Source of the DNA: Frankia tisae
Lineage (GTDB): Bacteria; Actinomycetota; Actinomycetes; Frankiales; Frankiaceae
NCBI RefSeq assembly: GCF_025403405.1
Contig: NZ_JANEZT010000013.1
Location: 1 to 37,969, forward strand
Direction: 5' to 3'
Length of the DNA: 37,969 nt
The number at the start of each line of letters is the position of its first letter. Positions within the stretch are counted from its first letter, which is position 1. Shown here one piece after another: positions 6,968 to 26,844 of the stretch. The position numbers and the translations under genes are program-made. Below the pieces are notes generated by a model that was given only the letters and a program-made list of their open reading frames with translations, made no database searches and was not told the origin of the DNA.

Positions 6968-6972
6968 TCAGG
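6945..6972. repeat. 14-bp exact tandem repeat over the CoA-transferase stop
   Basis: GCCTGTCGCTCAGG occurs twice back to back. The right copy contains the minus-strand TGA (6968-6970) that ends the CoA-transferase gene, and the left copy gives a second identical TGA context just downstream. Confidence 0.9.
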
Positions 6973-8170
6973 GTTCGGCGATGACCTTGTCGTCGAGCAG
7001 GCGGAGGATCTCCGCCTCGCCATAGCCGAGCTCGGTGAGGACCTCGCGGGAGTGCTGGCCCAGGGCCGGTCCCGCACGGCGGGCCGACGGCAGCTCGTCG
7101 TCGAACTGCACCGGAGCGGCCGCGAGGCGGACGTCGGGATGCTCGGGATGCGCCATGAGATAGCCGTTCTCGACGACCGCAGGGTCGGCGACGACCTCCG
7201 TCGGGGTCGCGAAGAACGAGAAGATGCAGCCCTGGGCGCGCAGCTTCGCGTCCACCTCGGCGTGGTCGAGGGTGGTGATGACCGCGTTGATCCGCTCGTA
7301 GATCACCGGCCAGCCGGCCTTGCGCGAGGCCGGGTCGGGGAAACGGGCGATGAGATCGTCCAGGCCGAGGGCCCGGCAGGCCTGCTCCCAGTAGCGAGCC
7401 TCATCGATCATCATCAGGGACACCCACCGGCCGTCGACCGTCCGGTACTGGCGGATGAGCGGCGACAGCCGCTCCTCGGCCGCCATCGGCATCTGCTCGC
7501 CGGCCAGGGTGGTGTACGCCAGATCGGGTCCGAGCGTCCACGCCGCCGAGCCCAGCAGCGAGGTGTCGACCACGATGCCCTTGCCGGTCCGCCCCACGTG
7601 CACGAGCCCGGCGCAGATTCCACCGGCCAGGAACATCCCGCTGGGACCGTCGCCGAGTGCAGGACGCTGCTGGGTCAGGCGCGGCGCGTCCGCGGCGGTC
7701 AGGACGTGGGCCACGCCGCCGCGCGCCCAGTACGAGACACCGTCGAAACCGCCGGCCTCCGCGTCGGGCCCGCGCTGCCCCTGGCCGTGGCCGCGGGCGT
7801 ACACGATGCTCGGGTTGAGGGCGAAGATGTCGGACGGTTCCGTGCGCAGCTTTCGGCGGACGCGGGGAAGCTGGTTGGTGATGTACACCTCGGCCCAGCG
7901 CACGAGCTTCTCGAAGATCTCGCGGCCCGCGGGCTGCTCGACGTCTAAGGCGATGCCGCGCTTGTTGCGGTTGAACAGCTCGAACTGGAAGTCGTAGCCG
8001 TCCTTCGTGGCCACCAGGCCACCGGCGATGATCCTGCGCATGGCGTCGCCGGCCAGCCGCTCGATCTTGACCACGTCGGCGCCGAAGTCGCCCAGCGCCG
8101 CGGCGGCCGACGGCACGAAGCCGTGCTCGGAGAAGTCGAGGACTCTGACGCCCTCCAACGGTCTGGTCAT
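6968..8170 (-). CDS. CaiB/BaiF (family III) CoA-transferase
   Basis: Family III CoA-transferases move CoA between carboxylic acids through mixed-anhydride and thioester intermediates. The 400-residue protein has the N-terminal RPLEGVRVLDFSEHGFVPSA, DFGADVVKIERLAGD (28-42), FELFNRNKRGIALDV (63-77), and the catalytic Asp expected at Asp174 in ALGDGPSGMF, followed by GRTGKGIVVDTSLLGSAAW. The ATG at 8170 is used; longer frames would extend into the divergent promoter. It is divergent from the PrpE-like acyl-CoA synthetase across 179 bases, which suggests joint use in acyl-CoA metabolism. The acid substrate is unknown. Confidence 0.9.
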   Translation of the reverse strand: MTRPLEGVRVLDFSEHGFVPSAAAALGDFGADVVKIERLAGDAMRRIIAGGLVATKDGYDFQFELFNRNKRGIALDVEQPAGREIFEKLVRWAEVYITNQLPRVRRKLRTEPSDIFALNPSIVYARGHGQGQRGPDAEAGGFDGVSYWARGGVAHVLTAADAPRLTQQRPALGDGPSGMFLAGGICAGLVHVGRTGKGIVVDTSLLGSAAWTLGPDLAYTTLAGEQMPMAAEERLSPLIRQYRTVDGRWVSLMMIDEARYWEQACRALGLDDLIARFPDPASRKAGWPVIYERINAVITTLDHAEVDAKLRAQGCIFSFFATPTEVVADPAVVENGYLMAHPEHPDVRLAAAPVQFDDELPSARRAGPALGQHSREVLTELGYGEAEILRLLDDKVIAEP

Positions 8171-8349
8171 GACTGCTCTCCCCACGTCGATTCGCTTTGG
8201 CGCGAAAACGTAACACCACGAGCCGGGCCGAAGTCGTGGTCGACGGCGGAAGGCCAGGCCACGCCGACACGCCCGGTGGTGCCGCGCGACGGCGATCAGG
8301 AGTGCCGGAATTCGCTCCGGTGGTCGCCGGGGGCGGGAGGATGACGGCC

Positions 8350-11760: not shown

Positions 11761-13899
11761 TCAGGCCATGGCCCCCGGGCCGCGCAGCATCCGCCGGACC
11801 TGTTCCCGCTGATGAGGCAGCAGCGCGGGCCCGTGTGCCTGCAACGCCCGCCGGAGCAGGTCGTCGGCGCGGGAGTCGTCGCCAATCGCGCGCAGCACGC
11901 CGCCTGCGCACCACAGGACCGGGCCGCTGTCCGGGGCGTCGTCGAGGACGGCTGTCGCCTCGGCGGATGCGGCAGCCGAACGTCCCAGCCGCGCCAGCGC
12001 GAGCGCCCGGGCGGCGCGGGTCTCGGTGGCCCGGTCGGTATCCGGAGCGCTGCGGCGGATCGCCTGCTCGAGGTCGTCGAGGGCGGCGACGTCGTCGCCC
12101 AGTTCGAGCATCAGCCGGCCGCGTTCGATCCGGGCCGTCATCGACTCCGGCGCGATGGTCAGCACCGTCGAGAAGATTGCGGCGGCCGCCCAGCGCTGGC
12201 CCGAGTACCACAGCGCGCGGGCAAGGTCGATCTGCACGCCGAGGTCAGCGGGCAGGCGCACCGTGGCGGCCTGTAGGTCCTCGACCGCGCCGCCGAGCCG
12301 ACCGAGCCGCAGCAGCAGCCGTCCCGTCGCGGCCAGCGCCCGGCCGGACGCCTCGGTGTCCGGCAGTGACTCGCCGAGTTGCGCGGCCTCGCGGTAGCGC
12401 CGTTCCGCCTGTTCGACCCGCCCCTGCGCTTGGTCGAGCTCGGCCCGCAGCATCAGCGCCTGCACCATGGTGCGCGGCTCGTCGGCGCTGCGCCGCAGGG
12501 CCTCGTCGACCTGGTCGCATGCGGCCGCGAGGTCCCCATCCCCCTGGCTGATCAGGGCCGCCTGCAGGTAATCCGCCGCCGCGATGTCCGCGGCGGACGC
12601 CCCGGCCAGCGCCCAGTCCGGCACCGCCGCCTGCAGCGGTGGGATGAGCCGGTCATCGAAGAGCTCGAACCGCCGCGCGCCCGAACGCCACTCGCCGGCA
12701 AGGACGTACCGCTCGGCCAGCGCGGCCAGCAACCGGTTGGGCATCCCGGCGGTCGTCGCGATGCCCTCGTCGACTGTCGCCCGCCGCCCGCGCTCGGTGA
12801 TGAACGTCCGGGTCAGCCAGCGGCGCACGACCGCGTCGTCGAGGCCGTGCCGCCGAGACTCGGCCACGATGACCCGGGTCAGGTACGCCCCCAAAACGGC
12901 GTCCGACACTCCTCCCCGGGCCAGCGAGGCAGGGACGACGGACGCGGCGGATCCGGTCTCGTCCCGCCAGAGCGCCGCGGCCACGAGCTGCAGGTAGGCC
13001 GGCTGAACCCGGTCGGCCACCAGGACTGCCGGCGTCCCTGCGGCGTCGACGACCCGACTGGTCCGCAGATCGTCCACGCAGGCCGCTGCGGCATCCGGCG
13101 GCAACACGCGGCCCGCGCGCCGCATCGGCTCGGCCATGGCCGCGATCGCCGCGCGCCGCTCCAGCGGCTCGACGGCGACCCAGGTGATGCCGCCGTCGCT
13201 GGCCAGGGTGTTCTCGTACCGGGCGAGCGCCGCCCGGAAACTCTGCCGGATCACCAGGAGCAGCCGCAGGTTGGGCAGCGCCGCGGCCGCCTCCGCCAGC
13301 ATCGTCACGAACTGCTCGCGGAACACCTCGAGATGCGGCGTGCGCGGGGCGAAGAACTCCTCGAACTGATCAACCGCGGCCAGGATCGGCCGATTCGGGT
13401 CGAAGGACTCCCCTGGTCTCCCGGTGTCGGCGCCGCTCAGGCCGCCGCTGTCCCGCCCGCTGCTACCTCGGCCGGCCTCGCCGTCCAGAGCTGGGCCCCG
13501 GACCGGGCTCGGTGACCAGTCGCCGAGATGGTGCCGGAGTTCGACGGGCAGCGTTCCCGTGCCCCCCGGACCAGACCAGGTCCGCAGCACCGCCTCGGCA
13601 TAGGGGTTGCCACCTTGACCGGCCGAAGCGGGACCTCTGCCGGTTCCCCCCGGTGCCGACGAGATCCGCCCCACCGGCAGCACGTCGGCGACTTCCGGAG
13701 AAAGATGTGGAAGCACTCCTGCCCGAAGCAGCGAACTCTTTCCTGCTCCGATTGGTCCGTACACGACAACAAGGCGGTTCTCAAGCCATTGGGCCAGGAG
13801 GGTGTGGGCAACGGCCACCCGCCCGAAGAACTGCGCCGAGTCAACCTCCACAAAAGACCGAAGGCCGGGAAACGGCGGGTCGCCTGGAACGACCGCCAT
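11761..13899 (-). CDS. nSTAND1-type STAND NTPase with C-terminal TPR-like repeats
   Basis: STAND NTPases are signalling switches that oligomerise on ligand binding. The N-terminus PFPGLRSFVEVDSAQFFGR (10-28) is the typical entry of the nSTAND1 family. Walker A is GPIGAGKSS (about 49-57) and Walker B is ILAAVDQFEEFF. A winged-helix-like region with DAVVRRWLTRTFI follows. From about residue 440 the chain is a TPR-like helical solenoid (ALMLRAELDQAQGRVEQAER, ERGRLMLELGDDVAALDDLE). No effector domain such as protease, TIR or nuclease is visible at either end, and no membrane segment. A Gly/Pro-rich insert lies between Walker A and Walker B. The ATG at 13899 follows a possible GAGG site; a GTG lies one codon earlier. 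It is transcribed away from the NB-ARC gene across an 869-base gap, and may belong to the same response system; that is inference. Confidence 0.85.
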   Translation of the reverse strand: MAVVPGDPPFPGLRSFVEVDSAQFFGRVAVAHTLLAQWLENRLVVVYGPIGAGKSSLLRAGVLPHLSPEVADVLPVGRISSAPGGTGRGPASAGQGGNPYAEAVLRTWSGPGGTGTLPVELRHHLGDWSPSPVRGPALDGEAGRGSSGRDSGGLSGADTGRPGESFDPNRPILAAVDQFEEFFAPRTPHLEVFREQFVTMLAEAAAALPNLRLLLVIRQSFRAALARYENTLASDGGITWVAVEPLERRAAIAAMAEPMRRAGRVLPPDAAAACVDDLRTSRVVDAAGTPAVLVADRVQPAYLQLVAAALWRDETGSAASVVPASLARGGVSDAVLGAYLTRVIVAESRRHGLDDAVVRRWLTRTFITERGRRATVDEGIATTAGMPNRLLAALAERYVLAGEWRSGARRFELFDDRLIPPLQAAVPDWALAGASAADIAAADYLQAALISQGDGDLAAACDQVDEALRRSADEPRTMVQALMLRAELDQAQGRVEQAERRYREAAQLGESLPDTEASGRALAATGRLLLRLGRLGGAVEDLQAATVRLPADLGVQIDLARALWYSGQRWAAAAIFSTVLTIAPESMTARIERGRLMLELGDDVAALDDLEQAIRRSAPDTDRATETRAARALALARLGRSAAASAEATAVLDDAPDSGPVLWCAGGVLRAIGDDSRADDLLRRALQAHGPALLPHQREQVRRMLRGPGAMA

Positions 13900-14130
13900 C
13901 ACACGCCTCGTATGCTACAGCGCCGGGACGGCGGAACCTCGTGCACCTGGGTGGATGGATCAGGCCCCGAGGATTCGGCCGACACCACGGAACGCCACCC
14001 CTCGTGGCCGGTACCGCCCGACAGCGGGCGAACGGGCCGCACGACGACCGCGCGCCGGAAAACCGCATTTACGCTGACAGCTGCGACCGTTTCAGTAGCC
14101 AATGTAGTAGAGCCCCTCGTTGCCAACCTC

Positions 14131-14768: not shown

Positions 14769-17381
14769 GTGTCGCGCCAAAGCAAGCTGTTTCGCATCGG
14801 ACAACGCGGGGGCAAAGTGGATTCGTCGGTGGTGAGGTCAGTTCCGATACAGGACACCGGCCGGCGGGTCCCGACCGTATGGGGGAACGTCCCGCAAAGG
14901 AACAAGAACTTCACCGGCCGAGAAGGGCTGCTCACCGAGCTACGTGCCCAGATCACCTCGGACACGCGAGACATCACCGCGGTGCTGCCGCATGCTTTGC
15001 AGGGGCTCGGCGGCGTGGGTAAGACTCATCTGGCGATCGAGTACGCCCACCGATTTCAGACCGACTACGACCTCGTATGGTGGGTCCCCGCAGACCAGCC
15101 CTCGCTAGTCCGGTCGACTCTTGCCGCGCTGGCCCCACGGTTGGGACTGGCCGACGCCGCCCCACTGCGGGTCGACGACGCCGTCGCCCTGGTCCTGGAC
15201 GCGCTGCGCCGCGGGGAGCCGTACCGCCGCTGGCTACTGATCTTCGACAATGCCGAGCAGCCGGAGCTGATCCGTCCCAGCATCCCGCAGGGTCCGGGGC
15301 ACATCATCGTGACCTCGCGCAACCGTAGCTGGCTGAGCCATGTCGACACGATCGAGGTCAACGTCTTCGACCGCAGAGAGAGCCTGGAGTTCCTCCGCCG
15401 TCGAGTTCCGGCGATCTCGGCGCCCGACGCCGACGAGCTGGCCGAGGCCCTCGGCGACCTGCCGCTCGCTCTGGAGCAGGCGGGCGCGCTGCAGTCCGAG
15501 ACCGGCATGGGCGCCCAGGAGTATCTGGAGTTGTTGCGCAACGCCGGCGGCAGGCTGCTCGCCGAGAACTCGGCCGCCGACTACTCCAGGCCGGTCGCCG
15601 CGGCGTGGAGCCTGTCGGTGAACCGCCTGCAGGAACAGGCCCCGTTCGCGCTGGAACTGCTCCGCCGCTGTGCGTTCTTCGGCCCGGAGCCGATCTCGAT
15701 GGAAATGCTCGACCGCGGCAAGTACATCCTGAAATCCGAGTTCGGCATCGCCATGCAGGACCGGCTGCTGGTCAGCCGCGCGATCCGGGAACTCGGCCGC
15801 TACGCCCTCGCCCGCATCGACACCAACAACCGGACGCTACAGGTCCACCGGCTCGTCCAGAAGCTCATCCGCGACGACCTGCCCGCCGAGGATCAGCGGC
15901 GCGTGCGCGACGAGGTGCACCAGCTGCTCGTCGGGGCTGACCCGGGCGACGCGGACGACGAGGAGAACTGGGCTCAGTTCGGTCGGCTGCTGCCGCACAT
16001 CGTGCCCTCCGAGGTGCACCAGGCCCAGGATCCGCCGTCACGCCAGCTGATCGAACACATCGTCAGGTACCTCTACCAGACCGGTGACTTCACCACCGGC
16101 CTCGTCGAGGCGGACCGGGCGCTGGCCAGCTGGATCGCCGATTCCGGCGACAACGACCCCGATGTCCTCGTGCTGCGGGGCATCAAGGCGGACATCCTCT
16201 GGGCGCTCGGCCGATACCGCGAGGCCTATGACCTACGGCGTCCCACCCTCGAGGCCATTATCGAGGTGCTCGGCGCCGATCACGAGGAGACGCTGATCAT
16301 CCTCAACGGCCACGGCGCGGACCTACGTGCCCGCGGCGAATTCGACGCCGCGCGCGAGCTTGACGAAAACTCCCTTGCCCGTCACCGGACGGTGTTCGGC
16401 GAGGAGACCCGGGCCACCCAGAACGCCGCCAACAACCTCGCCGTCGACTACAGCCTCACCAGCGCCTACGCGCGTGCGCTTGCCGCCGACGAGCGCAACC
16501 TCGCCGAGCGGCGTGCCCTCCACGGCCGCGATGACGCCCAGTGGGTGGTACACGCGATGGCCGCGCTGGCTCGCGACCTCCGACAGGCCGGACAGTACCT
16601 GGAGGGCAGGAAGCTGGCAGAGCAGGCGTACCTGATCTATCGCGACATGGTTCAGCGCCGCGTACTGCCAGTCGAGCATCCCCACGTGCTTCTGCAGTTC
16701 AAGGAACTCTCGGTGGCGCGCCGCAAGGCCGGTGACTTCACCGCCGCACTGGAGCTGGCGCAAGAGGTGCACAGCCGGTACACCAACAGCCGGCAGTACG
16801 GCTCGGAGCACCCGGACACCCTCGCCGCCGGGATCAACCTCGGCAACGCGCAGCGGGTGGCCGGCGATCCGGAGGAGGCCACCATCCGGATCGAGAAGAC
16901 GGTCCGCCGGTACCGTGACGTGCTCGGCCCCGACCATCCGTACACCTACGGCTGCGCGCTGAACCTCGCCCTCGTCCACCGCCAGCTCGGGCAGGTCGAG
17001 GAAGCCGAGAGCCTCCTGATCGCGTCACTCGCCGGCCTGGAGACGAGGCTGGGCGCCGACCATCACTACACCCTGACCTGTCTGGCGAACCTGGCGACGG
17101 CACGCTCAGCCCTGGGACGCCCGGACGAGGCCCTGAAAATGGGTGAGGCGGCGCTGGCCCGGTTCCGTGAACTGATCGGGCCGGACCATCCGCACACGCT
17201 GGTCTGCGCGACCAATGTGGCGCTGGACCTTGGTGCCGTCGGCCGGGTGGAGGAGGGCCGGACGCTCACCGAGGACACGATGCGCCGCTACCGGCGGGTC
17301 CTCGGCGAGAACCATCCGGACGTGCAGGCCGGCCTGCGCGGCGAGCGGCTCGACTTCGACTTCGAGCCGCCACCGCTATAG
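14769..17381 (+). CDS. NB-ARC NTPase with TPR repeats, FxSxx-COOH system type
   Basis: This 870-residue NLR-like protein resembles the C-terminal two thirds of the FxsT protein at 22703-26638. After a short N-terminus the entry RNKNFTGREGLL leads to the P-loop LQGLGGVGKTHLA (Lys85), a Walker B-like RRWLLIFDNAEQPE, HIIVTSRNRSW and LGDLPLALEQAGALQ. A winged helix follows, ending LQVHRLVQKLI. From about residue 430 there are TPRs of the kinesin-light-chain type with repeated LGADH/LGPDHP-x-T motifs. The end is FEPPPL, matching the DPPPP end of the paralogue. It lacks the KGGTGR and TIR-like parts of that paralogue. The start is uncertain: the GTG at 14769 has no spacer to a GGCGAG, and a GTG at 14817 is an alternative. 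Its stop is 5 bases from the convergent HExxH gene. Confidence 0.87.
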   Translation: MSRQSKLFRIGQRGGKVDSSVVRSVPIQDTGRRVPTVWGNVPQRNKNFTGREGLLTELRAQITSDTRDITAVLPHALQGLGGVGKTHLAIEYAHRFQTDYDLVWWVPADQPSLVRSTLAALAPRLGLADAAPLRVDDAVALVLDALRRGEPYRRWLLIFDNAEQPELIRPSIPQGPGHIIVTSRNRSWLSHVDTIEVNVFDRRESLEFLRRRVPAISAPDADELAEALGDLPLALEQAGALQSETGMGAQEYLELLRNAGGRLLAENSAADYSRPVAAAWSLSVNRLQEQAPFALELLRRCAFFGPEPISMEMLDRGKYILKSEFGIAMQDRLLVSRAIRELGRYALARIDTNNRTLQVHRLVQKLIRDDLPAEDQRRVRDEVHQLLVGADPGDADDEENWAQFGRLLPHIVPSEVHQAQDPPSRQLIEHIVRYLYQTGDFTTGLVEADRALASWIADSGDNDPDVLVLRGIKADILWALGRYREAYDLRRPTLEAIIEVLGADHEETLIILNGHGADLRARGEFDAARELDENSLARHRTVFGEETRATQNAANNLAVDYSLTSAYARALAADERNLAERRALHGRDDAQWVVHAMAALARDLRQAGQYLEGRKLAEQAYLIYRDMVQRRVLPVEHPHVLLQFKELSVARRKAGDFTAALELAQEVHSRYTNSRQYGSEHPDTLAAGINLGNAQRVAGDPEEATIRIEKTVRRYRDVLGPDHPYTYGCALNLALVHRQLGQVEEAESLLIASLAGLETRLGADHHYTLTCLANLATARSALGRPDEALKMGEAALARFRELIGPDHPHTLVCATNVALDLGAVGRVEEGRTLTEDTMRRYRRVLGENHPDVQAGLRGERLDFDFEPPPL

Positions 17382-17397
17382 CTCCGCTACAGCTCCG
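17376..17397. repeat. 11-bp near-exact tandem repeat over two convergent stops
   Basis: CTATAGCTCCG is followed by CTACAGCTCCG. The left copy includes the TAG of the NB-ARC-TPR gene on the plus strand, and the right copy includes the TAG of the HExxH gene on the minus strand. Confidence 0.75.
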
Positions 17398-19246
17398 TTG
17401 TCCCCGTTGTTGTCCCAGCGGGGACCGGTTCGGGCAGCCAGGACGTCAGGGCGTCCGGGTCGATACGCTTCCCGGTCAGCTCCTCGATGCCTCGGTGCAC
17501 CGCGCGGACCAGCTCCGGGTGAGCGATGAGTATCCGGCTGCCGCCCGGGTCGGTCTCCCGCCGGCATAGGGCGAGACCGGCCCAGGCTCCGAGGCGGTCC
17601 GGATCGCCGGCGATCTCCTGCTTGTACGCGGCCGCGGCCAAGTGGACGTCCCCGAAGGCATGGGCGCGATCGGCGAGCGAAAACTCCTGTTCGAGCACAC
17701 CGGGAACGCCCTCCCGTGCCGCGGCGAAGACCTTCGGCTCGTTCAGCCGGAGATGCACCAAATCCAGCCGGGCGCTGTGAACCAGACCGCGGCTGCCGGG
17801 CCGGACACCGGCGTCCACCCGCATCCCGGCCGGAGCCTGACGGCCCTTCGCCCAGGCTTCGGCGAGGGCCGCCACCTGGTCGGCGGCGGGTTCCAGGTTG
17901 CACAGCCGCCAGGTCGTCCAGGTGTCGAGGCTGATCTGGCGGGCCAGCCGCCGCGGCTCGGCCGGGACCGCAGCCTGACGATGCCGCCCAATCACCGTCC
18001 GCATGCCGTCGATGAAACGCAGCCCGAGCGGGGTGAGGGCACCGGAGAGCCGGATCGTCACGAGAACCCGCCACACCTCCTCCCGCCACCGGGCGAACTC
18101 GAAATGCGCATAATCCGGTTCGGAGAGCACTCGACGTTGGAAATTCCAGAAGTCGACGAGGCCGAGATAGGCATACGCGCCCTGCAGCAGACCGGGCAGG
18201 GGACGCGGATCGGCACGCCAGGGCGCGTAGAACAGCCGACCCTCGACCGATTCGAACAGGGTGACGAGGTCGAGCAGCGCCGACAGCTTGTTGTGCTGGA
18301 ACTCGTGGATCAGCGCGGCCGCACACGACAGGCCGTCCTTCGGCAGCGTCATCGCCACCGCGCCGAACGCCTCGCCGGCGGAGGCGCTGAGCTCGGTCGC
18401 CTCGCTCGTCACCCGCAGCGGAAAGATCGTCGTGAGCCCGGCAGCGAGCGCCTCGGCGGCCGGCGGGTCGTGTCGTCGCAGGATCCGCCAGCCCTCGTCG
18501 ATCCGCTGCTGCCACAGCTCCACCGCGTCCGGCTCGACCTCGGCCGTCATCGGGAGATCGAGCCAGCGGCGGGCGGGATCGTGGAAATCCAACCGCAGGT
18601 CAATCCGCCCGCCGTCGGCCTCACTGCCAAGCACGGGCACCGGTTCCCAGCCAGCATCGGCGCCACCGGGCCCGCTTCGACCCGGCTGCGCCGGCCGCTG
18701 CCAGTCGATCCGGACCGGTCGACCATCGGCCGGATCGGCGCTGCGGATCGTCAGCATGCGGCCGGCGGTTCGCGCCCGGGCCCAACCGGTCAGCTCGCCT
18801 CGGTAGCGGCCCAGCGTGGGCAGAACCAGCTCGCTGCCGCTGATCAGCAAAGTGACCTCAGCGTCCAGCCCGGTGCGCAGGGCCGCCACGACGGCGAGGG
18901 TCCCGAGACCGGCCAGATCGTCCTCGATCGGCGTCGGCGAGGTGACGGTACCGTGTAGTCGCCGCAGGCAGTGCATCGCCCACAGCCCGAAACCCGGGGA
19001 GAGTAGCAGCTCGCCAACCTCGTCGGCGGCGATCCGCTGGGCTGCGACCAGCACTTTGAAGCTGGCGTCGAGGCCGCTCTTTGCGACGGCGTCCGGTTTC
19101 AGGTGGGCCGCATCGTCCAGGAACGCTCGCAGGACCAGCAGCCGCTTGCTGAGTTGCGTCACCCGAAGCTGGCGGACAAGCTTCGCTCCAGACCACCCGG
19201 CCGCCAGTTCATCGAAGTCGGAAGTGGCCAGCCGATGAAATTTCAC
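17387..19246 (-). CDS. HExxH-motif protein, peptide beta-hydroxylase-like, FxSxx system
   Basis: This 619-residue protein has the HExxH motif HEFQHNK at residues 314-320 in the context SCAAALIHEFQHNKLSALLD. It belongs to the HExxH-motif proteins that travel with radical SAM/SPASM enzymes; some relatives have been described as 2-oxoglutarate-dependent peptide beta-hydroxylases rather than proteases. Metal binding by His314 and His318 is expected. The N-terminal 160 residues are helical, and the region after the motif contains YAYLGLVDFWNFQRRVL. The last 150 residues look like a helical repeat tail. The GTG start at 19246 overlaps the TGA of fxsB as GTGA, so translation is coupled and equal expression likely. 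The chemical reaction on the FxsA peptide is inferred from family and context. Confidence 0.85.
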   Translation of the reverse strand: MKFHRLATSDFDELAAGWSGAKLVRQLRVTQLSKRLLVLRAFLDDAAHLKPDAVAKSGLDASFKVLVAAQRIAADEVGELLLSPGFGLWAMHCLRRLHGTVTSPTPIEDDLAGLGTLAVVAALRTGLDAEVTLLISGSELVLPTLGRYRGELTGWARARTAGRMLTIRSADPADGRPVRIDWQRPAQPGRSGPGGADAGWEPVPVLGSEADGGRIDLRLDFHDPARRWLDLPMTAEVEPDAVELWQQRIDEGWRILRRHDPPAAEALAAGLTTIFPLRVTSEATELSASAGEAFGAVAMTLPKDGLSCAAALIHEFQHNKLSALLDLVTLFESVEGRLFYAPWRADPRPLPGLLQGAYAYLGLVDFWNFQRRVLSEPDYAHFEFARWREEVWRVLVTIRLSGALTPLGLRFIDGMRTVIGRHRQAAVPAEPRRLARQISLDTWTTWRLCNLEPAADQVAALAEAWAKGRQAPAGMRVDAGVRPGSRGLVHSARLDLVHLRLNEPKVFAAAREGVPGVLEQEFSLADRAHAFGDVHLAAAAYKQEIAGDPDRLGAWAGLALCRRETDPGGSRILIAHPELVRAVHRGIEELTGKRIDPDALTSWLPEPVPAGTTTGTTEL

Positions 19247-20481
19247 GCTTGTCCCAGGCGGCGTCGGACGGGTTCCAGATCGGCATGGATCCGGTCCCCG
19301 ATGTGCACGATCAGCTTGAACAGGTCCGCACAGTACACCGAGCGGTTACGGAAACCGCTGCCCGGCCGGTACCGGTGTGGATAGTAGCCGCCGCCGCAGA
19401 CCCGGTGGATCGAGCAGCGGGCGCATTCCTCGCCGAGGGCCTCGACCCCGATCTGCCGGGCGACGATGCCTGGATGACCGAGCGCGGCGTCGAAATCGTC
19501 CCGTTCTACGTGCAGTCCGGTCAACGCCGCCCCATGGTAGGCGGACTTCAACGCGTCGACCTGCTCGATCGACCCGTCCGTCTCCACCACGATCACCGTC
19601 GACGGGGTCAGACCGACAGTCTCGACCCGACTACGTCCACCGAGGAGAAGTGCGATGATCTCGTCGAACAGGCGGAGGCTCGTCTCGTGTTCCGGGGCCG
19701 TATACCAGCGCTCGAACAGGGCGATGAGCCAATCCGCGTACGGAGCAAGCGTCTCGTCCTCCACCCGGCCGGCCGGCCGGACCAGCCAGTTTCCGTGCGG
19801 CAGCAGGAAGTCGACCCCGGGCGGACGCCAGGCGAGCAGGCTTTCGTAGACTTCCACCGGATCGCTGTCCAGGTCAATGACGCAGAGCAGACCGGCGAAG
19901 GCGGCACGGAACCGTTCGGACGTCAGTCGCTCGAGCCCGACGTGCGTGCCCGCTAGGCTGCTGGCCCCGTCGCGGCGCACCCGCCGCCGATTGTGATGCT
20001 CGGCTCCCCCGTCGATGCTGACCCCCACGCCGATGCCGTGGCGCAGGCACAGCTCGAGCATCCGCTCGTCGAGGAGCACGGCGTTGGTCTGAATACTGAA
20101 GGCGATTCGGGTGTGCGGTGGCGCGGCCTCCCGGAACACCGTGACCAAATCGTCAAGCATGCCGGCACCGGCCAACAGTGGCTCGCCGCCGTGGAGGACG
20201 ATCTCTATCGCGGCCAGCCCGTGCCGATGGACGTGATCCGCCACCCGCCCGGCCGTCGCGGCGACGGTACGGCGACTCATCACGGTGGGCTGGCTGCGCC
20301 ACCCTTGATCAGCTTGATGATAGACATAACAGTAAGTACACGAAAGGTTGCAGCGACTGTGAATCTTGAGAACGACCTGCCGGAAAGGCTCCGGGCGCCG
20401 GCCCGACCAACTACGCTGCTCGCCTGTTAGAAAGCCGTACGGCCACTCGGGCCGCCGCGTCTCAGCGCGAATGTTCTGCAC
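19243..20481 (-). CDS. fxsB: FxsB-type radical SAM/SPASM peptide maturase
   Basis: Radical SAM/SPASM enzymes install carbon-based crosslinks or other modifications in ribosomal peptides. The [4Fe-4S] motif is Cys44-x3-Cys48-x2-Cys51 in HSRCNLSCTYCYVYHQAD, with the SAM-binding GGEP at 98-101 and SIDGG further on. The C-terminal SPASM-like part has Cys353, Cys356, Cys362 and Cys384 (EECARCSIHRVCGGGYYPHR), enough for an auxiliary cluster. At 412 residues it has the normal length of the FxsB family, and YHQADQGWRSQP matches that family. The GTG at 20481 lies 11 bases after the precursor stop, with GGGAG just upstream. The order precursor, FxsB, HExxH protein on one transcript argues that the small peptide is its substrate. 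Confidence 0.92.
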   Translation of the reverse strand: MQNIRAETRRPEWPYGFLTGEQRSWSGRRPEPFRQVVLKIHSRCNLSCTYCYVYHQADQGWRSQPTVMSRRTVAATAGRVADHVHRHGLAAIEIVLHGGEPLLAGAGMLDDLVTVFREAAPPHTRIAFSIQTNAVLLDERMLELCLRHGIGVGVSIDGGAEHHNRRRVRRDGASSLAGTHVGLERLTSERFRAAFAGLLCVIDLDSDPVEVYESLLAWRPPGVDFLLPHGNWLVRPAGRVEDETLAPYADWLIALFERWYTAPEHETSLRLFDEIIALLLGGRSRVETVGLTPSTVIVVETDGSIEQVDALKSAYHGAALTGLHVERDDFDAALGHPGIVARQIGVEALGEECARCSIHRVCGGGYYPHRYRPGSGFRNRSVYCADLFKLIVHIGDRIHADLEPVRRRLGQA

Positions 20482-20492
20482 CTCGCTCCCGC

Positions 20493-20690
20493 CTACGGAG
20501 CCGAGAGGCTGGAATTGAAACCCGCGCTCGACGTGAAGCCGGCATGCGCAGCTGGCTGCTGTGTGGCCTCCCAGCCGAGCCGCTGCACGGCTCGGCGCAG
20601 CGCGGGGTTATCCACCGCCTCGATCGCGCCAAGCGGCCACCCGCTCATGTCGGGTAGGCGTGTCTCAATGCCTGTCAGCCACCTGTCCAC
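20493..20690 (-). CDS. fxsA: FxsA-like precursor peptide with doubled FxSxx motif
   Basis: This is the presumed substrate of the downstream FxsB and HExxH proteins. The GTG at 20690 is chosen because a perfect AGGAGG (20697-20702) lies six bases upstream, giving 65 residues. The leader has RLPDMSGWPLGAIEAVDNPA (11-30) and LRRAVQRLGW, which matches the leader style of FxSxx-COOH proteins. The core region holds two motifs, FTSSA (52-56) and FNSSL (58-62), and ends with the three extra residues SAP. The family rule is that FxSxx is the very C-terminus, so both the doubling and the extension are unusual. The stop TAG is 11 bases from fxsB. Missed or alternative starts (TTG at 20723) are less likely given the ribosome binding site. 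Confidence 0.85.
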   Translation of the reverse strand: MDRWLTGIETRLPDMSGWPLGAIEAVDNPALRRAVQRLGWEATQQPAAHAGFTSSAGFNSSLSAP

Positions 20691-20696
20691 CAGCAA

Positions 20697-20702
20697 CCTC
20701 CT
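20697..20702 (-). promoter_or_regulatory. Ribosome binding site that fixes the fxsA start
   Basis: A full AGGAGG on the minus strand stands six bases before the GTG at 20690. It is the strongest Shine-Dalgarno match in the fxs locus, which fits the need for more peptide than enzyme. Confidence 0.75.
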
Positions 20703-20845
20703 AGACCCGCCCCGATCATCCAATCTAGCCTGGGTCGGCGCCGGGCGCCCCTAAAGTGAACCATGGCGCTCCGCCCACCGTAGATAGTCGGTCTGGGGGG
20801 ACAGCCAACGCCTGAGATCCGGAGCCCGCACGTCCGCGGTCCTCG

Positions 20846-20867
20846 GAAACCGTACTTAGCCGGTTTC
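20846..20867. promoter_or_regulatory. Inverted repeat in the fxs divergent region
   Basis: GAAACCG (20846-20852) and CGGTTTC (20861-20867) form perfect arms around eight bases, TACTTAGC. It lies between the two divergent fxs operons and is a candidate operator shared by both. Confidence 0.4.
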
Positions 20868-21232
20868 TGAACCAGCAGCGCACGTCAACTCCGCGCCCGT
20901 GCGACGCTCTCCACCGGATGACCACGCTGCGCCGATCTGGCCGCAAACCAGCCTGCCGCATACGGCAGGACCACGACGTAGACTCTGTTCTCACTCAGCG
21001 ATACCTGGTGCGGGAGGGGCCGACGGGGACGCCGAACCCGGCGTCGTCGCACGAGAATCGAGGGGACCAGTGGAGTCGGGGGAGATCATCTGGGGATCGT
21101 CGAGTCGTCAACGGACGCAACACGGGGCAGAGCCCGAAAACACCGATAGCCGACTGCCAGCAAGTCGCACCGCCATCCATCCAACTCAAATGATCATGCG
21201 GGTGTACGTACCCCCGGCCGCGTCCTGACCCG

Positions 21233-22693
21233 ATGATGACGCCGCCCCCGTACTTCTTTCTCAGCTACGCTCGGGCGGACAACACGGACGGCCCCTATCT
21301 CGAAACGTTCTTCACCGATCTACGACACGAGGTACGCACCCGGGGCGGCCATCCCAGCCTGGACGAGGTCGGTTTCCTCGACACCGCAAGTATCCAGCCG
21401 GGCGAGGCATGGTCGGATGAGCTGGCGAACGCCCTCGGGCGATGCCGGACCTTCGTGGCTATCTGTTCGCGCAGCTTCTTCACCAGCGAGTACTGCGGCC
21501 GAGAGTGGCAGGTCTTCACCGACCGGCTCCGCGAGCGGGCACTGGCGGGAGCAGTGCGCCCGCCGGCGCTACTCCCCGTGATCTGGACACCGTTACGTCC
21601 ACCGCCGACGATCCTCGCCCACTTACAGTACAATCACGATGATCTAGGGAGGTGCTACGCCCAGAACGGCCTGCGATATCTCCTGCAGCTGAAGCGGAAC
21701 CACGACGAGTACCAGGAGTTCCTGGTGGCGCTGGCCGAGCGGATCGTACATCTGGCCGAGAACTCCCCGCTGCCGCCCATGGCTCAAGCCCCTGACTTCC
21801 ACGCGGTGCGAAACGCGTTCGGGCCGACGGCGCCCCCCGACCCGCCAGAACCGCCTGCTCCGCCGACTTCCCCAGCTCCGCGGACTCCGCCGGCTCCCCC
21901 GGTACCGCCATCGGTTTCGCCGGCCCAGACGGCCGCCCCGCCGGACGGGGGTGTCGCCCGGAACATCCATCGGATAGCAGGTCCTGCGGCCCAGCCGCAG
22001 CCCGGACCCGACTTCTGGCTCGGCAGGTCCCGTGAACCGCAGGCGGCGCCCCAGACCCCCGGGGCGGAGGAAGCCACAATGGCAGATTCCGAGGGCGGCG
22101 GCCCCAAGCGGGTGACCTTCGTGTTCGCAGTCACCTCGGCTCGGGCGATATCGGCACTGCGTCAGCAGCTGGATTACTATGGCAGCGATTTCGACGACTG
22201 GACGCCCTACCATCCGAACTTCCGGCAGCGGGTGTGCATCTCAGCGCAGGCCGTGGCGGCGAGCCAGGAGATGTCGTCCAGCGTCGTACCACTGCATGCC
22301 GGGATCAGCGAGCTGCTCGAGAGATCAAGAGAACGCAACGAGGTCGTCATCTTCATCATTGACGTGTGGACGGCAACGCTGGAGCCGTTCCGTACCGCAC
22401 TCATCGAGTACGACCGACGCAACGAGCCCACCACGGGTGTATTGGTTCCCTGGAACCCGGATGATGTCGAGACGGCCGAGAACGCCACCGAGCTGAGAGC
22501 CGCCCTGGCCGAGGCGCTGAGCAACAACATGCTCCGCCGGGACAATCTTATGGATGTCAGCTCATATGATGAGTTTGGACCGACTCTCATCCAACTTCTC
22601 ACCGACCTGCAGGCCCGGATCTTCTCCTCCCGCCCGTCGTTCCGAACCCGTAACACCCAGTCCCGCCGTCGACCCTTCCTTCAGGGACCCTAG
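21233..22693 (+). CDS. fxsC: TIR-like protein FxsC
   Basis: FxsC proteins join an N-terminal TIR domain to a conserved C-terminal domain and occur with FxSxx-COOH peptides. Here the TIR part covers residues 1-165: YFFLSYARADN at the start, SIQPGEAWSDELANALGRCR, and FVAICSRSFFTSEYCGREW, where Glu91 is at the position of the catalytic Glu of NAD-cleaving TIRs. A Pro-rich linker follows (about 195-235). The C-terminal domain (about 285-465) shows VTFVFAVTSARAISALRQQL, VVIFIIDVWTATLEPFRTAL and TTGVLVPWNPDD. Two ATGs in tandem form the start and no ribosome binding site is seen. A TTA leucine codon occurs at 21623. The gene ends nine bases before fxsT, forming an operon. NADase activity is untested. 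Confidence 0.88.
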   Translation: MMTPPPYFFLSYARADNTDGPYLETFFTDLRHEVRTRGGHPSLDEVGFLDTASIQPGEAWSDELANALGRCRTFVAICSRSFFTSEYCGREWQVFTDRLRERALAGAVRPPALLPVIWTPLRPPPTILAHLQYNHDDLGRCYAQNGLRYLLQLKRNHDEYQEFLVALAERIVHLAENSPLPPMAQAPDFHAVRNAFGPTAPPDPPEPPAPPTSPAPRTPPAPPVPPSVSPAQTAAPPDGGVARNIHRIAGPAAQPQPGPDFWLGRSREPQAAPQTPGAEEATMADSEGGGPKRVTFVFAVTSARAISALRQQLDYYGSDFDDWTPYHPNFRQRVCISAQAVAASQEMSSSVVPLHAGISELLERSRERNEVVIFIIDVWTATLEPFRTALIEYDRRNEPTTGVLVPWNPDDVETAENATELRAALAEALSNNMLRRDNLMDVSSYDEFGPTLIQLLTDLQARIFSSRPSFRTRNTQSRRRPFLQGP

Positions 22694-22702
22694 GGGATAT
22701 CG

Positions 22703-25700
22703 GTGACGGGATCACTACTGGGACGCATCGTCACGTTCTACTCATACAAGGGCGGGACCGGCCGCTCGATGGCACTGGCCAACATCGCCTGGCTGCTTGC
22801 CAGCAACGGCCGGCGCGTCCTCGTCGTGGACTGGGACCTGGAAGCGCCTGGCCTGCAGCGATACTTCCATCCGTTCCTGCACGACCCCGAGCTTCGCTCG
22901 ACCCGCGGGGTAATGGATCTGATCTGGGACTTCACCGCGACGGTGATGTCCCCACCGGTGCGCGGCGAGGAGGACTGGTTCGAACGAGCCACCGCGATCA
23001 CTCCCTATGCAGAGTCTCTGGATTGGGACTTCCCGAAGGACGGGACGATCGACTTCGTCTGTTCCGGTCGGCATGACCCGGCCTATTCTCAACGCCTGAG
23101 CACGTTCGACTGGAGCACGTTCTACGATGCGCACGGCGGCGCCGATTTTATCGATGCCCTTCGAGAGAATATGCGTTCCGCCTACGACTGGATACTCATC
23201 GACAGCCGGACCGGGCTAAGCGACACCGCGGGAATCTGCACAGTCCAGTTACCCGACATAGTCGTCAACTGTTTTACACTCAGTACCCAAAGCATCGAAG
23301 GTGCGGCCGCCGTCGCACGGTCAATCAGCGGCCGCAACGATTCCCATGATATTCGAATTTTCCCGGTCCCGATGCGAGTCGAAGACGGCGAGCAGAAGAA
23401 ACTTGAACTCGGGCGCGATCTCTCTCGGGCAACCTTTGATGTCTTCCTCCAGGAGCTGGATTCAGGCGAACGTGACCTGTACTGGGGTGACGTCGAGATA
23501 CCGTACAAGCCTTACTACGCCTACGAGGAGATTCTCGCCGTCTTCGGAGATCGGCCGCACCAGGAGGGAACGCTGCTCGCCGCCTACGAACGGCTGGCCT
23601 CTCATCTCACCGACCACGAGATAGACACCATGCCCGCGCTGAACGAGCGGCAACGCCGCCGCGTTCTGGCAGGCTTCGAGCGCACCCAGATCTCGATTCC
23701 GACCGACATCGTGGTCAGCTATGCCGCCGGAGATCGCAACTGGGCCGACTGGATCGTCACCGAGTTGACGGCGGTCGGCTTCGCCGTGACCCCGGAGCCG
23801 GTCGCAACCGAGCCGCCGGGTCGGATCGATGGTGTCTCGGCGGAATCCGATGGCGGCGCTGGGCGCAGAACGGTTGCCCTTCTGTCCGCTGCCTACGTCC
23901 GATCGGCTCAGGGGCAGGCAAGGTGGCGCCGGGCGATCGCCCGAGACCCGGATGGACTCGCTCGGCATCTTCTACCTGTGCGCATCGAGGACTTTGCGAT
24001 TCCAACCGAGTTCGGCGACCATGATCACACCGATTTCGTCGGCTTAGACGAGGCGCCCGCACGCCGAGCCCTGCTCGCCGCTGTAGGTCGCCCGCACCAG
24101 CGCGCGACGGTCGACCGGCCGCAGGCCGACGTGGCCGCCATCGTCCGGTTTCCCGGGGCGCCGCCGCAGATCTGGGCAGGCGTACCAGCGCGTAATCCTG
24201 CCTTTGTGGGCAGAGAAAACATGCTCGCCCACATCCGCGACCGCTTCGTCGGCAACGACGGCGCGCCAACCCACGCCCAGGTGCTGCAGGGTCTCGGCGG
24301 CGTGGGCAAGACCCAGCTCGCCGTGGAGTACGTGTACCGCTTCGGCGCCTCCTACGATCTGGTCTGTTGGGTGGGCTGTGACCAACCCGCGCTGGTCCGC
24401 AGCGGCCTGGCGGGCCTGGCACGGGAGCTTCGGCTACCCGTCAGGCCGGGCCACGAGCCGATCGACGATGTGCTGAACTCTCTGCGCCGAGGCGCTCCGT
24501 ACCGGCGCTGGTTACTCGTCCTTGACAGCGCGGACAGCCCCGACGAGATTATTCCACTGGTCCCGCACGGCCCGGGACATGTACTCATCACCTCCCGGAA
24601 CCAACGCTGGCAGGGACGCCAGGAACGCGTGGAGATAGGCGTGTTCAGCCGGGACGAAAGCATCGCTCTACTCCGTCGGCGGGCACCCACGCTGACCGCC
24701 GAGGTTGCCGCCCAGCTTGCCGAGGCACTCGGCGATCTACCGCTGGCCCTCGAACACGCGGGTGCCTGGCACGCCGAGACCGGGATGAGTGCCGAAAGCT
24801 ACCTTCGTCTCCTCGGCAGCAGTCCCGGCCCGCTGCTGTTGGAGGGAGAGATCCCCACCTATCCACGGCCCGTCGCCCGGACATGGCTGCTGTCGGTCGA
24901 GCGACTGCGCGAAAAGGTTCCCATCGCGGCCCGCCTCGCCGAGCTGTGCGCTTTCTTCGGACCGGAACCGATCGGCCTGCAGATCTTCACCGGGGACGGG
25001 CTGCGGGATCTCGCGGACCCGGGGGACCAGGTGTTTCGGAACCCGATCACGCTGGCCACCGCCGTACGGCACATCACCGAGCACGCGCTAGCCCGGGTCG
25101 ATGAGAAGGGCCAGAGCCTGGAGATGCACCGACTCGTGCAGGCGGTGATCCGAGACGACCTCGCGCCCGATCGACGAGCCGACGTCCGCCGCCGGGTCCA
25201 GACCCTACTCGCCGCCGCCAATCCCGGCAAACCGGATGATCCGGACAGTTGGCCCCGCTATGCTCTACTCCGTCCGCACATCGGGCCAGCCGGCGCGGCC
25301 CGTTCCGACTCGCCGGAGGTTTGCGGCCTGGTCGCCAACCTCGTGCGCAGCCTGTACATGCAACGCGATCACAGCGGCTGCCGAGAGCTCGCCGGCGAGA
25401 CACTCGCCGTCTGGCGGGACACCCTGGGCGAGGACGACCGGCGGACCCTGGAACTCGCCTTGGACCTCGCCGACAGTCTGCGGGCTTTGGGCGAGCCAGA
25501 GCAGGCCCGGGGCCTGGACCAGTCGGCCAGGCAGCGACTGCTGCACACTCTCGGTCCCGATGCTCCGCTTTCCCTGCGAGCAGCGATGGCGCTGGGTGGC
25601 GATCTGCGCGGAATGCGCAGCTACCAGGAGGCTCGCTCGCTGGACGAGGAGACCTACGAAAGATTTCGCGCCCACGGCTTGCTAGACGAACCCGACAGGA

Positions 25701-26638
25701 TCAAGATTGCCAATAATCTCGCGGTGTCCCTACGCTTCGTGGGCGATTTCGAGCATGCCCTCGAACTTAGCCGGGACGTATATGAAAGAGTACGCCGACT
25801 GCGCGTCAAAAATGTCGTCTCCGAACTCCAGTTCGCCGACAGCCACGCTCGGGATCTGCGAGAGTTCGGCCAGTACCGGGAATCCCTCCTGATCCTGAAG
25901 GCGACGGTAGCCCGGTGCCGCGATATTCTCGGAAATGATCATGCCGACACTCTCCGATCGCTACGCAACTATGCGATCTCATTGCGCTGGTGCGGCCAGG
26001 TCGAACGCGCCCGCAGGGAGTCCGTCCACGCCCTCGACATGTTTCGCGCCCGGGTCGGTCGAGATCATCCGGAGACTCTGGCAACCGCAGTAAGCCTGGT
26101 CTGCGACCTGTGTCTGGCCCAAGATGCCTCGGCCGCGCGCAACCTGGCAGAAGAAACATCCCGGCGCGCCCACAGTCGGCTTGGACCGGACAGTCTCTAC
26201 ACACTCGCCGCAGCGAATTCACTGATTATGGCGTATCGTCTGGATGGCAGCACGATCACTGCCATCCAACTCGCAGAACAGACGGTCGAAAGACTGAGGA
26301 CCTCTCTACCGGAGGATCATCCGTTCATATTCTACTGCACCGCTAATCTTGCAAACTGCTATTATGATGCGAACAATTTCATACGCGCGCATGAGCTCGA
26401 CCAGAACGTCGAGTCCCACCTGCGAGCGAAACTCGGCAACGGCCACCCGCTCACGATGCTTGTCGCCGCGAATCATGCCGCCAGCCTGACGAAGACGGGC
26501 CAGGAATCGACCGGGCTCGCGGTGCGGGAAAGCGCACTGACAGATCTCGAAGCAAGCCTCGGATCAGACCATCCGAGTACCGAACGAGTGCGCAACGGCG
26601 TCCGTATAGATCTTGAGATCGACCCTCCGCCGCCCTGA
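22703..26638 (+). CDS. fxsT: FxsT-like protein: KGGTGR P-loop, TIR-like, NB-ARC and TPR domains
   Basis: This 1311-residue protein combines four parts. Residues 1-290 are a ParA/MinD-like NTPase with the deviant Walker A KGGTGRS (16-22), VLVVDWDLEAPGLQRYF and ILIDSRTGLSDTAG. Residues about 330-465 are TIR-like (TDIVVSYAAGDRNWADWIVT), but the catalytic Glu position reads Arg in QARWRRAI. Residues about 490-840 are an NB-ARC switch with LQGLGGVGKTQLA (Lys536) and LGDLPLALEHAGAWH. Residues about 880-1300 are TPRs with LGRDHPETLATA-type repeats, ending DPPPP. The GTG at 22703 has AGGGG upstream and follows fxsC by nine bases. Three TTA codons (23249, 24044, 24512) and a lower GC content near both ends set it apart from its neighbours. 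The likely role is sensing or signalling in the FxSxx system; the ligand is unknown. Confidence 0.88.
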   Translation: MTGSLLGRIVTFYSYKGGTGRSMALANIAWLLASNGRRVLVVDWDLEAPGLQRYFHPFLHDPELRSTRGVMDLIWDFTATVMSPPVRGEEDWFERATAITPYAESLDWDFPKDGTIDFVCSGRHDPAYSQRLSTFDWSTFYDAHGGADFIDALRENMRSAYDWILIDSRTGLSDTAGICTVQLPDIVVNCFTLSTQSIEGAAAVARSISGRNDSHDIRIFPVPMRVEDGEQKKLELGRDLSRATFDVFLQELDSGERDLYWGDVEIPYKPYYAYEEILAVFGDRPHQEGTLLAAYERLASHLTDHEIDTMPALNERQRRRVLAGFERTQISIPTDIVVSYAAGDRNWADWIVTELTAVGFAVTPEPVATEPPGRIDGVSAESDGGAGRRTVALLSAAYVRSAQGQARWRRAIARDPDGLARHLLPVRIEDFAIPTEFGDHDHTDFVGLDEAPARRALLAAVGRPHQRATVDRPQADVAAIVRFPGAPPQIWAGVPARNPAFVGRENMLAHIRDRFVGNDGAPTHAQVLQGLGGVGKTQLAVEYVYRFGASYDLVCWVGCDQPALVRSGLAGLARELRLPVRPGHEPIDDVLNSLRRGAPYRRWLLVLDSADSPDEIIPLVPHGPGHVLITSRNQRWQGRQERVEIGVFSRDESIALLRRRAPTLTAEVAAQLAEALGDLPLALEHAGAWHAETGMSAESYLRLLGSSPGPLLLEGEIPTYPRPVARTWLLSVERLREKVPIAARLAELCAFFGPEPIGLQIFTGDGLRDLADPGDQVFRNPITLATAVRHITEHALARVDEKGQSLEMHRLVQAVIRDDLAPDRRADVRRRVQTLLAAANPGKPDDPDSWPRYALLRPHIGPAGAARSDSPEVCGLVANLVRSLYMQRDHSGCRELAGETLAVWRDTLGEDDRRTLELALDLADSLRALGEPEQARGLDQSARQRLLHTLGPDAPLSLRAAMALGGDLRGMRSYQEARSLDEETYERFRAHGLLDEPDRIKIANNLAVSLRFVGDFEHALELSRDVYERVRRLRVKNVVSELQFADSHARDLREFGQYRESLLILKATVARCRDILGNDHADTLRSLRNYAISLRWCGQVERARRESVHALDMFRARVGRDHPETLATAVSLVCDLCLAQDASAARNLAEETSRRAHSRLGPDSLYTLAAANSLIMAYRLDGSTITAIQLAEQTVERLRTSLPEDHPFIFYCTANLANCYYDANNFIRAHELDQNVESHLRAKLGNGHPLTMLVAANHAASLTKTGQESTGLAVRESALTDLEASLGSDHPSTERVRNGVRIDLEIDPPPP

Positions 26639-26655
26639 GTTCAGCACCGAGCGGT

Positions 26656-26844
26656 TCATCGACCGTCGTCAGAACGAACGCTCGAGTTGAACCCTGACTG
26701 TGAGGCGGTCGGGCTCTCGGCCTCCTGACGCAGCCTGGCCAGGGCGCGCAGGAGGTGGGGGTTCGAATGGTCGCCGAGCTCGGCGAGTCCTGTCCTGGAC
26801 AGGTCGGGCAGAACCGACTCGAACACGTTGTCCCCGTCGATCAT
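26656..26844 (-). CDS. Second FxsA-like precursor peptide with C-terminal extension
   Basis: This 62-residue frame starts at the ATG at 26844, with GGGAG ten bases upstream, and ends at TGA 26656-26658, 17 bases from the convergent fxsT stop. The leader has VLPDLSRTGLAELGDHSNPH (11-30) and LLRALARL, which lines up with the first precursor (LPDxS, NP, RL, EA). The core has GFNSSV at 51-56, with Phe52 at exactly the same residue number as in the first precursor. The peptide then continues six residues, RSDDGR, beyond the FxSxx motif. It has no modifying enzyme next to it, so modification would have to be by FxsB encoded 6 kb away. It was found by reading the sequence and could be missed by automated annotation. 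Expression is unproven. Confidence 0.72.
   Translation of the reverse strand: MIDGDNVFESVLPDLSRTGLAELGDHSNPHLLRALARLRQEAESPTASQSGFNSSVRSDDGR

What the first reader, a model, noticed from the sequence alone, without database searches (positions are those of the whole stretch)
17387..26844. FxSxx radical-SAM peptide locus with two precursor-like genes and NLR-like proteins
Seen: a short peptide, an FxsB-type radical SAM/SPASM enzyme and an HExxH protein in one coupled operon; divergent TIR-FxsC and FxsT (ParA-like, TIR-like, NB-ARC, TPR); a second peptide frame at the far end. Known: the FxSxx-COOH set of FxsA, FxsB, FxsC, FxsT and HExxH proteins has been defined by genome comparison in actinobacteria, but to my knowledge its product and purpose are not established. 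Inference: a modified peptide is made and sensed by STAND/TIR proteins, which resembles a built-in signalling or immunity circuit.
Basis: partly seen in the sequence, partly recalled or inferred. Interest (0 to 1): 0.78.

Follow-up and report, generated by a model that had tools for sequence, protein, structure and literature searches.

The report
Peptide-maturing locus with NLR-like switches
A Frankia gene cluster makes two short peptides that are probably cross-linked into tight rings, and carries them with proteins built like the immune switches of plants and animals; the family is known, but this version has more parts than first seen and nobody has shown what the peptide does.

Summary
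The named parts are present and match curated families: FxsB, an HExxH protein, FxsC, FxsT and two FxsA-like precursors, one of them just under its cut-off. Two parts were missed: a second, full-length FxsT (14769-17381), tail to tail with the HExxH gene, and an nSTAND1-TPR gene (11761-13902). The layout recurs in 8 Frankia-group relatives. Among 80 FxsB loci from other genomes, FxsT lies nearby in 70, a precursor in 71, HExxH in 61, nSTAND1 in 47, FxsC in only 10. The chemistry is no longer unknown: an FxsB-family enzyme makes a Phe-Ser cyclophane (PMC11002830), and characterised HExxH relatives are hydroxylases, some of which also cut (PMC12636437). A 2020 paper described such standalone systems and proposed the peptide as toxin or signal (PMC7159879). 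My best reading is a modified peptide that acts as a regulatory ligand of the CED-4-like FxsT switches, with the FxsC TIR domain among the outputs. Ligand binding is inference. Against it: MFS transporters in 30 of 81 loci, and no sign that FxsA2 tracks its neighbour receptor. A new variant of a known system; purpose untested.

The parts
   Evidence: Pfam nSTAND1 2e-28; family in 47 of 80 related loci; in 34 family genomes 20 of 23 distinct homologues at E<=1e-50 lie near an over-cut-off FxsB on the same contig (one search compared)
14769..17381 (+).
   Evidence: NF040586 970.5 bits, cut-off 300; AlphaFold pLDDT 89.3, CED-4/Apaf-1-like NB-ARC and peptide-receptor-like TPR superhelix
17387..19246 (-). 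aKG-HExxH-type peptide beta-hydroxylase family protein (619 aa), motif HEFQH
   Evidence: TIGR04267 176 bits, cut-off 40; PDB relatives 22nu 5.1e-48 and ChlH 8s5f 1.1e-6; HExxH kept in 64 of 64 aligned homologues
19243..20481 (-). FxsB: radical SAM/SPASM cyclophane-forming peptide maturase (412 aa)
   Evidence: TIGR04269 434.7 bits, cut-off 370; PDB relative ChlB 9gm3 5.5e-77; C12, C16, C19 and C321, C324, C330, C352 of the aligned stretch invariant in 20 sequences
20493..20690 (-). FxsA1 precursor, about 65 aa from a GTG placed 6 nt after AGGAGG (open frame from TTG 20723); core GFTSSAGFNSSLSAP
   Evidence: TIGR04268 24.9 bits, cut-off 28, so just under; in-house profile 5.2e-21; start chosen by eye
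21233..22693 (+). FxsC: TIR domain plus a second Rossmann-like domain and a conserved C-terminal tail (486 aa)
   Evidence: NF040588 and TIGR04276 over cut-off; model and fold matches; Glu of CGREW kept in 11 of 13 homologues
22703..26638 (+). FxsT-b: ParA-like (KGGTGRS), TIR-like, NB-ARC, TPR (1311 aa)
   Evidence: NF040586 874.4 and NF047398 149.6 bits; TIR_2 at 336-453; its TIR has no Glu at the place aligned with that of FxsC in 12 of 12, by eye
26656..26844 (-). FxsA2 precursor (62 aa), convergent with FxsT-b, 17 nt apart; core GFNSSVRSDDGR
   Evidence: TIGR04268 31.4 bits, cut-off 28; same place in the 8 close relatives, 25-60 nt between the open frames

Best explanation
This is a Frankia-type FxSxx-COOH system. 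FxsB probably joins the Phe ring to the beta carbon of the Ser two residues on in FxsA1 (two possible sites) and FxsA2 (one), making three-residue cyclophanes; the HExxH protein then probably beta-hydroxylates the peptides. These two steps rest on homology to characterised enzymes. I infer that the modified peptides stay in the cell and act as regulatory ligands of the two FxsT proteins, CED-4-like NB-ARC switches with a TPR superhelix of the peptide-receptor type. Activated FxsT would nucleate an output: the TIR domain of FxsC, which keeps the presumed catalytic Glu and so may destroy NAD+, and possibly the nSTAND1 protein. The most likely use is a defence or cell-death circuit against phage or other intruders. 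Whether the peptide switches the circuit on or holds it off cannot be told.
Against: No binding, modification, NADase or phage data exist here. MFS transporters lie in 30 of 81 loci, which suggests export in those lineages. The FxsA core follows the NB-ARC part of FxsT, not the TPR part, and in the 22 loci with FxsA by FxsT the core shows no preference for FxsT. In the nine two-receptor loci both precursors follow FxsT-a, and FxsA2 does not follow its neighbour FxsT-b. FxsC is in 10 of 80 loci only. The permutation tests do not remove shared ancestry. TPR fold matches are common and show no ligand. PADLOC names no known system; only the ParA part of FxsT-b matches a candidate, PDC-M28B.
Confidence: 0.5

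Rival explanations
1. The peptides are an exported RiPP, a signal or antibiotic, and the FxsT/nSTAND proteins are AfsR-like regulators or self-protection of its production.
For: MFS transporter gene in 30 of 81 loci: 9 in tandem within 300 nt of nSTAND1, 9 opposed to it, 5 in tandem with VMAP, 1 near FxsA, 6 in Nocardia loci beside FxsB or HExxH. Six Nocardia loci have FxsB without FxsT. FxsT-b has a weak match to the regulator AfsR, 2.3e-07.
Against: No MFS hit in the window or L031-L038 in that one search. Of 11 neighbour clusters shared by 8 or more loci, one was MFS-like and one ABC-ATPase-like (8 loci); no peptidase was recognised, though several clusters had no Pfam match. MFS genes are abundant in such genomes and I did not measure the background.
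Confidence: 0.25
2. The modified peptide is itself the toxic effector, held or released by FxsT, as PMC7159879 allows ('peptide toxin or signal').
For: Section 24 of PMC7159879, read whole; variable C-termini of the precursors.
Against: A TIR or SIR2 enzyme in part of the loci already supplies an effector; nothing here shows toxicity.
Confidence: 0.13
3. The HExxH protein is a protease that releases the C-terminal peptide, as proposed in 2020.
For: HExxH motif in 64 of 64; proposal in PMC7159879.
Against: NCBIfam now names the family aKG-HExxH-type peptide beta-hydroxylase; one of its two solved relatives is ChlH, a hydroxylase according to PMC12636437 (passages). PflC/PosC of the same family do cleave the backbone oxidatively, and PflC also hydrolytically, so cleavage is not excluded.
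Confidence: 0.12

Closest known systems
FxSxx-COOH system (NCBIfam TIGR04267, TIGR04268, TIGR04269, TIGR04276, NF040586, NF040588)
   Same: All five protein families present
   Different: Two FxsT genes, two precursors, an added nSTAND1 gene; HExxH separate and not fused to FxsB; precursors run 3-9 residues past FxSxx
Standalone actinobacterial peptide-processing systems of PMC7159879 (section 24)
   Same: Precursor, radical SAM-SPASM, zincin-like HExxH protein, AP-ATPase with inactive MinD/ParA domain
   Different: Its main text has 0 occurrences of SIR2 and of 'novel STAND' (figures and source data not seen); HExxH called a peptidase there
Triceptides / 3-CyFE enzymes (MscB, ChlB)
   Same: FxsB family; MscB makes C4(Phe)-Cbeta(Ser) (PMC11002830, passages); ChlB is the closest solved relative
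   Different: Those clusters are described as biosynthesis; here the enzyme sits with STAND and TIR proteins
CED-4/Apaf-1 and plant resistosome NLRs; RRNPP peptide receptors (Rap, NprR)
   Different: No ligand known; fold likeness only

Membership tests
FxSxx-COOH system | FxsB over curated cut-off | tested here: met
   434.7 of 370 bits
FxSxx-COOH system | FxsA precursor over curated cut-off | tested here: met
   A2 31.4 of 28; A1 24.9 is below it
FxSxx-COOH system | Precursor ends exactly in FxSxx | tested here: not met
   Both window precursors run on. Of 81 precursors found, 29 end so, 19 have FxS elsewhere in the core and 33 have none, so this does not define the family
FxSxx-COOH system | FxsC and FxsT over cut-off | tested here: met
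Triceptide-forming radical SAM enzymes (3-CyFE) | CxxxCxxC and SPASM cysteines | tested here: met
   Invariant in 20 aligned FxsBs
Triceptide-forming radical SAM enzymes (3-CyFE) | Aromatic residue two before the linked residue in the core (here F-x-S) | tested here: met
   Two in A1, one in A2
Triceptide-forming radical SAM enzymes (3-CyFE) | Makes the cyclophane | not testable with these tools
   Needs expression and mass spectrometry
aKG-HExxH peptide beta-hydroxylases | Family model and HExxH | tested here: met
   176 of 40 bits, HEFQH
STAND NTPases of the AP-ATPase/NB-ARC type | Walker A and NB-ARC fold | tested here: met
   GLGGVGKT in both FxsTs; CED-4 match for FxsT-a; FxsT-b was not folded
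TIR NADases | Catalytic Glu in the TIR domain | tested here: met
   FxsC: CGREW. The TIR-like domain of FxsT-b lacks it in 12 of 12. That this Glu is catalytic is recalled
VMAP ternary conflict system | MoxR and VMAP genes alongside | tested here: not met
   None found in the window; present with another HExxH-FxsT pair on contig C45 of this genome (L111)
Known anti-phage systems in PADLOC | Match of HExxH protein, FxsB, FxsC or FxsT-b to a named system | tested here: not met
   Only the candidate PDC-M28B for the ParA part of FxsT-b; FxsB hits viperin models at 5.9e-12, as a radical SAM relative. FxsT-a and nSTAND1 were not scanned with PADLOC

The most novel reading that the evidence does not exclude
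One pair of maturation enzymes makes two different cyclophane peptides for two separate NLR-like receptors in one locus: FxsA1 for FxsT-a and the nSTAND1 protein, FxsA2 for FxsT-b and the FxsC TIR enzyme. That would be a ribosomal, post-translationally modified peptide serving as the ligand of a bacterial NLR. The covariation test agrees for FxsA1 with FxsT-a but not for FxsA2 with FxsT-b; nine related loci cannot exclude the pairing.
Probability: 0.2. Interest if true: 0.87.

Novelty: new variant of a known kind. Interest (0 to 1): 0.6.

Why it matters
If a modified peptide gates an NLR-like switch, RiPP chemistry would be part of bacterial innate immunity, and the ligand question for a large family of actinobacterial STAND proteins becomes directly testable. 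The conserved neighbours (nSTAND1, SIR2, FxsC) tell which proteins to put together in the test.

Tried and rejected
Chance or artefact: rejected; curated models, conserved order in 8 relatives, reversed-ORF control.

Strict one-to-one pairing of precursor and receptor: counts of (FxsA, FxsT) over 81 loci were (1,1) 52, (2,2) 9, (1,2) 6, (1,0) 5, (0,0) 5, (0,1) 3, (0,2) 1; suggestive, but within the nine two-receptor loci both precursors follow FxsT-a (partial rho 0.61 and 0.46) and not FxsT-b (-0.16 and -0.03).

TPR as the sensor tracked by the core: not supported (TPR given NB-ARC -0.059, 392 of 500; NB-ARC given TPR 0.183, 4 of 500). In the 22 loci with FxsA by FxsT, the core gave 0.163 (46 of 500) for FxsT and 0.143 (49 of 500) for FxsB, so no preference there.

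'ParA-bearing FxsT always goes with FxsC': the KGGxGR motif does (12 FxsTs in 11 loci), but the FxsT of L084 has a ParA-like and a weak TIR match and no FxsC was found there, so the rule is not strict.

Limits of the counts: first precursor counts missed long open frames and were redone; the placement table still uses the earlier ones. L036's A1 (E 0.021) is left out of the counts but used, cut by eye. The profile missed a Streptomyces precursor (L118, E 0.12) that TIGR04268 finds over cut-off. Gene cut-offs in the scripts were my own. In one search at most 5 candidates per genome were scored. The first tail count was wrong and was redone. By eye, several FxsT-b TIRs have a Glu one or two residues before the aligned place.
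Full report
What is there. The window lies on contig C44 of a 7.07 Mb, 882-contig genome. Its closest FxsB relatives are Frankia (83% identity in Frankia sp. AgB32), so Frankia is inferred. On the minus strand, in order of transcription, lie a precursor (FxsA1), FxsB and an HExxH protein; on the plus strand FxsC and FxsT-b; then a second precursor (FxsA2) on the minus strand, convergent with FxsT-b.

Relatives. I aligned 20 FxsBs and fetched 80 loci with up to 10 kb flanks from named genomes; 438 candidates encoded a relative and the best 80 were kept, so the sample leans to near relatives. Some loci are cut short by contig ends. Five of the 47 nSTAND1 loci also hold VMAP, and the hit there may be another protein. 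Of the 10 loci without FxsT, six are Nocardia. The window's layout recurs in L031-L038 (FxsA1 of L036 seen by eye and weak, E 0.021).

Three types. Type 1, 42 of 80 loci, has nSTAND1 and neither VMAP nor MoxR; the usual order is FxsB, HExxH, then FxsT facing them. In 25 loci FxsA is followed on the same strand by nSTAND1, in 9 of these with a SIR2_2 gene between (my count; Pfam 8.2e-27 in L068). Type 2 has MoxR or VMAP genes and fits the VMAP ternary systems of PMC7159879. Type 3 has FxsC directly before a ParA-TIR-NB-ARC-TPR FxsT; the KGGxGR motif was found in 12 FxsTs, all in the 11 loci (window included) that also have FxsC, but L084 has a ParA-like FxsT without a detected FxsC. The window combines types 1 and 3.

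Co-occurrence in whole genomes. In a sample of 158 genomes of the class, 27 have FxsB over cut-off, 34 have FxsT at E<=1e-100, 11 FxsC at E<=1e-12 and 31 HExxH at E<=1e-8. Of the 27 FxsB genomes 26 have FxsT (missing: G064), 24 HExxH (missing: G064, G088, G158), 10 FxsC. FxsT occurs in 8 of the 131 others. The sample is enriched for the window's own family (12 genomes seen in the listings); outside it 17 of 18 FxsB genomes have FxsT, against 5 of 128 without FxsB. The FxsA search was noisy: 40 genomes at E<=0.01 but 17 over cut-off. For the nSTAND1 protein, 34 family genomes gave 23 distinct homologues at E<=1e-50 in 21 genomes; 20 lie near an over-cut-off FxsB on the same contig, one lies beside an FxsT on another contig (G034), and two are on contigs without FxsB (G012, G014).

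Without FxsB. I fetched seven loci with FxsT but no FxsB (L111-L117). On contig C45 of the same genome (L111), and in G001, G025 and G103 (L113-L115), HExxH and FxsT occur with MoxR and VMAP. A precursor-like leader was found in L111 (7.2e-06), L114 (3.7e-08), L115 (6.8e-05) and L116 (1.2e-04), none of them with FxSxx, and not in L112, L113 or L117. So peptide, HExxH and FxsT look like the core, with FxsB an addition for the FxSxx type. PMC7159879 says much the same for its RxD and acidic types.

Chemistry. FxsB is related to ChlB (5.5e-77), and PMC11002830 (passages) reports that MscB, given as IPR026335, links C4 of Phe to the beta carbon of Ser; that IPR026335 is the FxsB entry is my recollection. 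[quoted passage not shown] The window's HExxH protein matches 22nu (5.1e-48) and ChlH (1.1e-6).

Covariation. In 52 loci with one FxsA, FxsT and FxsB each, FxsA follows FxsT given FxsB (0.222; 2 of 500 permutations reach it) more than FxsB given FxsT (0.079; 56 of 500). The effect holds in 20 loci where FxsA lies by FxsB (0.364 against 0.187; core alone 0.444 against 0.260) and in 22 where it lies by FxsT (0.559 against 0.011, whole peptide), but not for the core alone in the latter (0.163 against 0.143), and the core follows NB-ARC rather than TPR. Shared ancestry is not removed. In the nine two-receptor loci both precursors follow FxsT-a, so FxsA2 shows no tie to its neighbour FxsT-b.

Against my reading. 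MFS transporters are in 30 of 81 loci, in fixed places in several groups, which fits an exported product; none was found in the window or L031-L038. No experiment supports ligand binding.

Literature. Nine searches listed no paper that I could recognise, by title, abstract start or the passages opened, as tying an FxSxx peptide to a tested function or as describing the nSTAND1/SIR2 neighbours; listings are capped and subscription journals are mostly missing. Of papers I saw section 24 and passages of PMC7159879, and passages of PMC11002830, PMC12636437 and PMC8195603; in the last nSTAND1 is named but 'FxS' does not occur.

Verdict. A real, conserved, Frankia-type variant of a known system. The new points are the second FxsT and the nSTAND1 gene as fixed parts, the frequent placing of the precursor beside the receptor instead of the enzyme, and the lack of a strict FxSxx-COOH end.

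Noticed in passing
G000 contig C45 (L111: HExxH 611-2554 +, FxsT 2613-8171 -, MoxR 6749-8038 -, VMAP 7897-9000 -; open frames): A second HExxH-FxsT locus of the VMAP type in the same genome, without FxsB, with a precursor-like leader that lacks FxSxx.
   Followed up: partly
L039, L041, L045, L050, L051, L052, L056, L057, L067, L068, L077, L079, L082, L083, L092: A SIR2_2-type gene next to nSTAND1 in 15 of 80 loci; in 9 of them it lies between FxsA and nSTAND1 on one strand, like an operon.
   Followed up: partly
L061, L065, L078, L090, L096, L106: Nocardia loci with FxsB and an MFS transporter but no FxsT found; perhaps an ordinary exported RiPP made by the same enzyme family.
   Followed up: no
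C-termini of FxsT (window 14769-17381, 22703-26638) and FxsC (21233-22693): Conserved last residues, acidic-PPP in FxsT and PxLxGP in FxsC, the latter after a low-confidence, probably disordered linker; meaning unknown.
   Followed up: partly
window 4595-5755: PLP enzyme over the cut-off of the NCBIfam GntG (guanitoxin) aldolase subfamily, 376.5 of 230 bits; probably an ordinary aldolase.
   Followed up: no
L094 17501-21082, L098, L101, L108: MFS and KAP NTPase regions downstream of nSTAND1 in four loci (one open frame in L094), another P-loop protein near the system.
   Followed up: no
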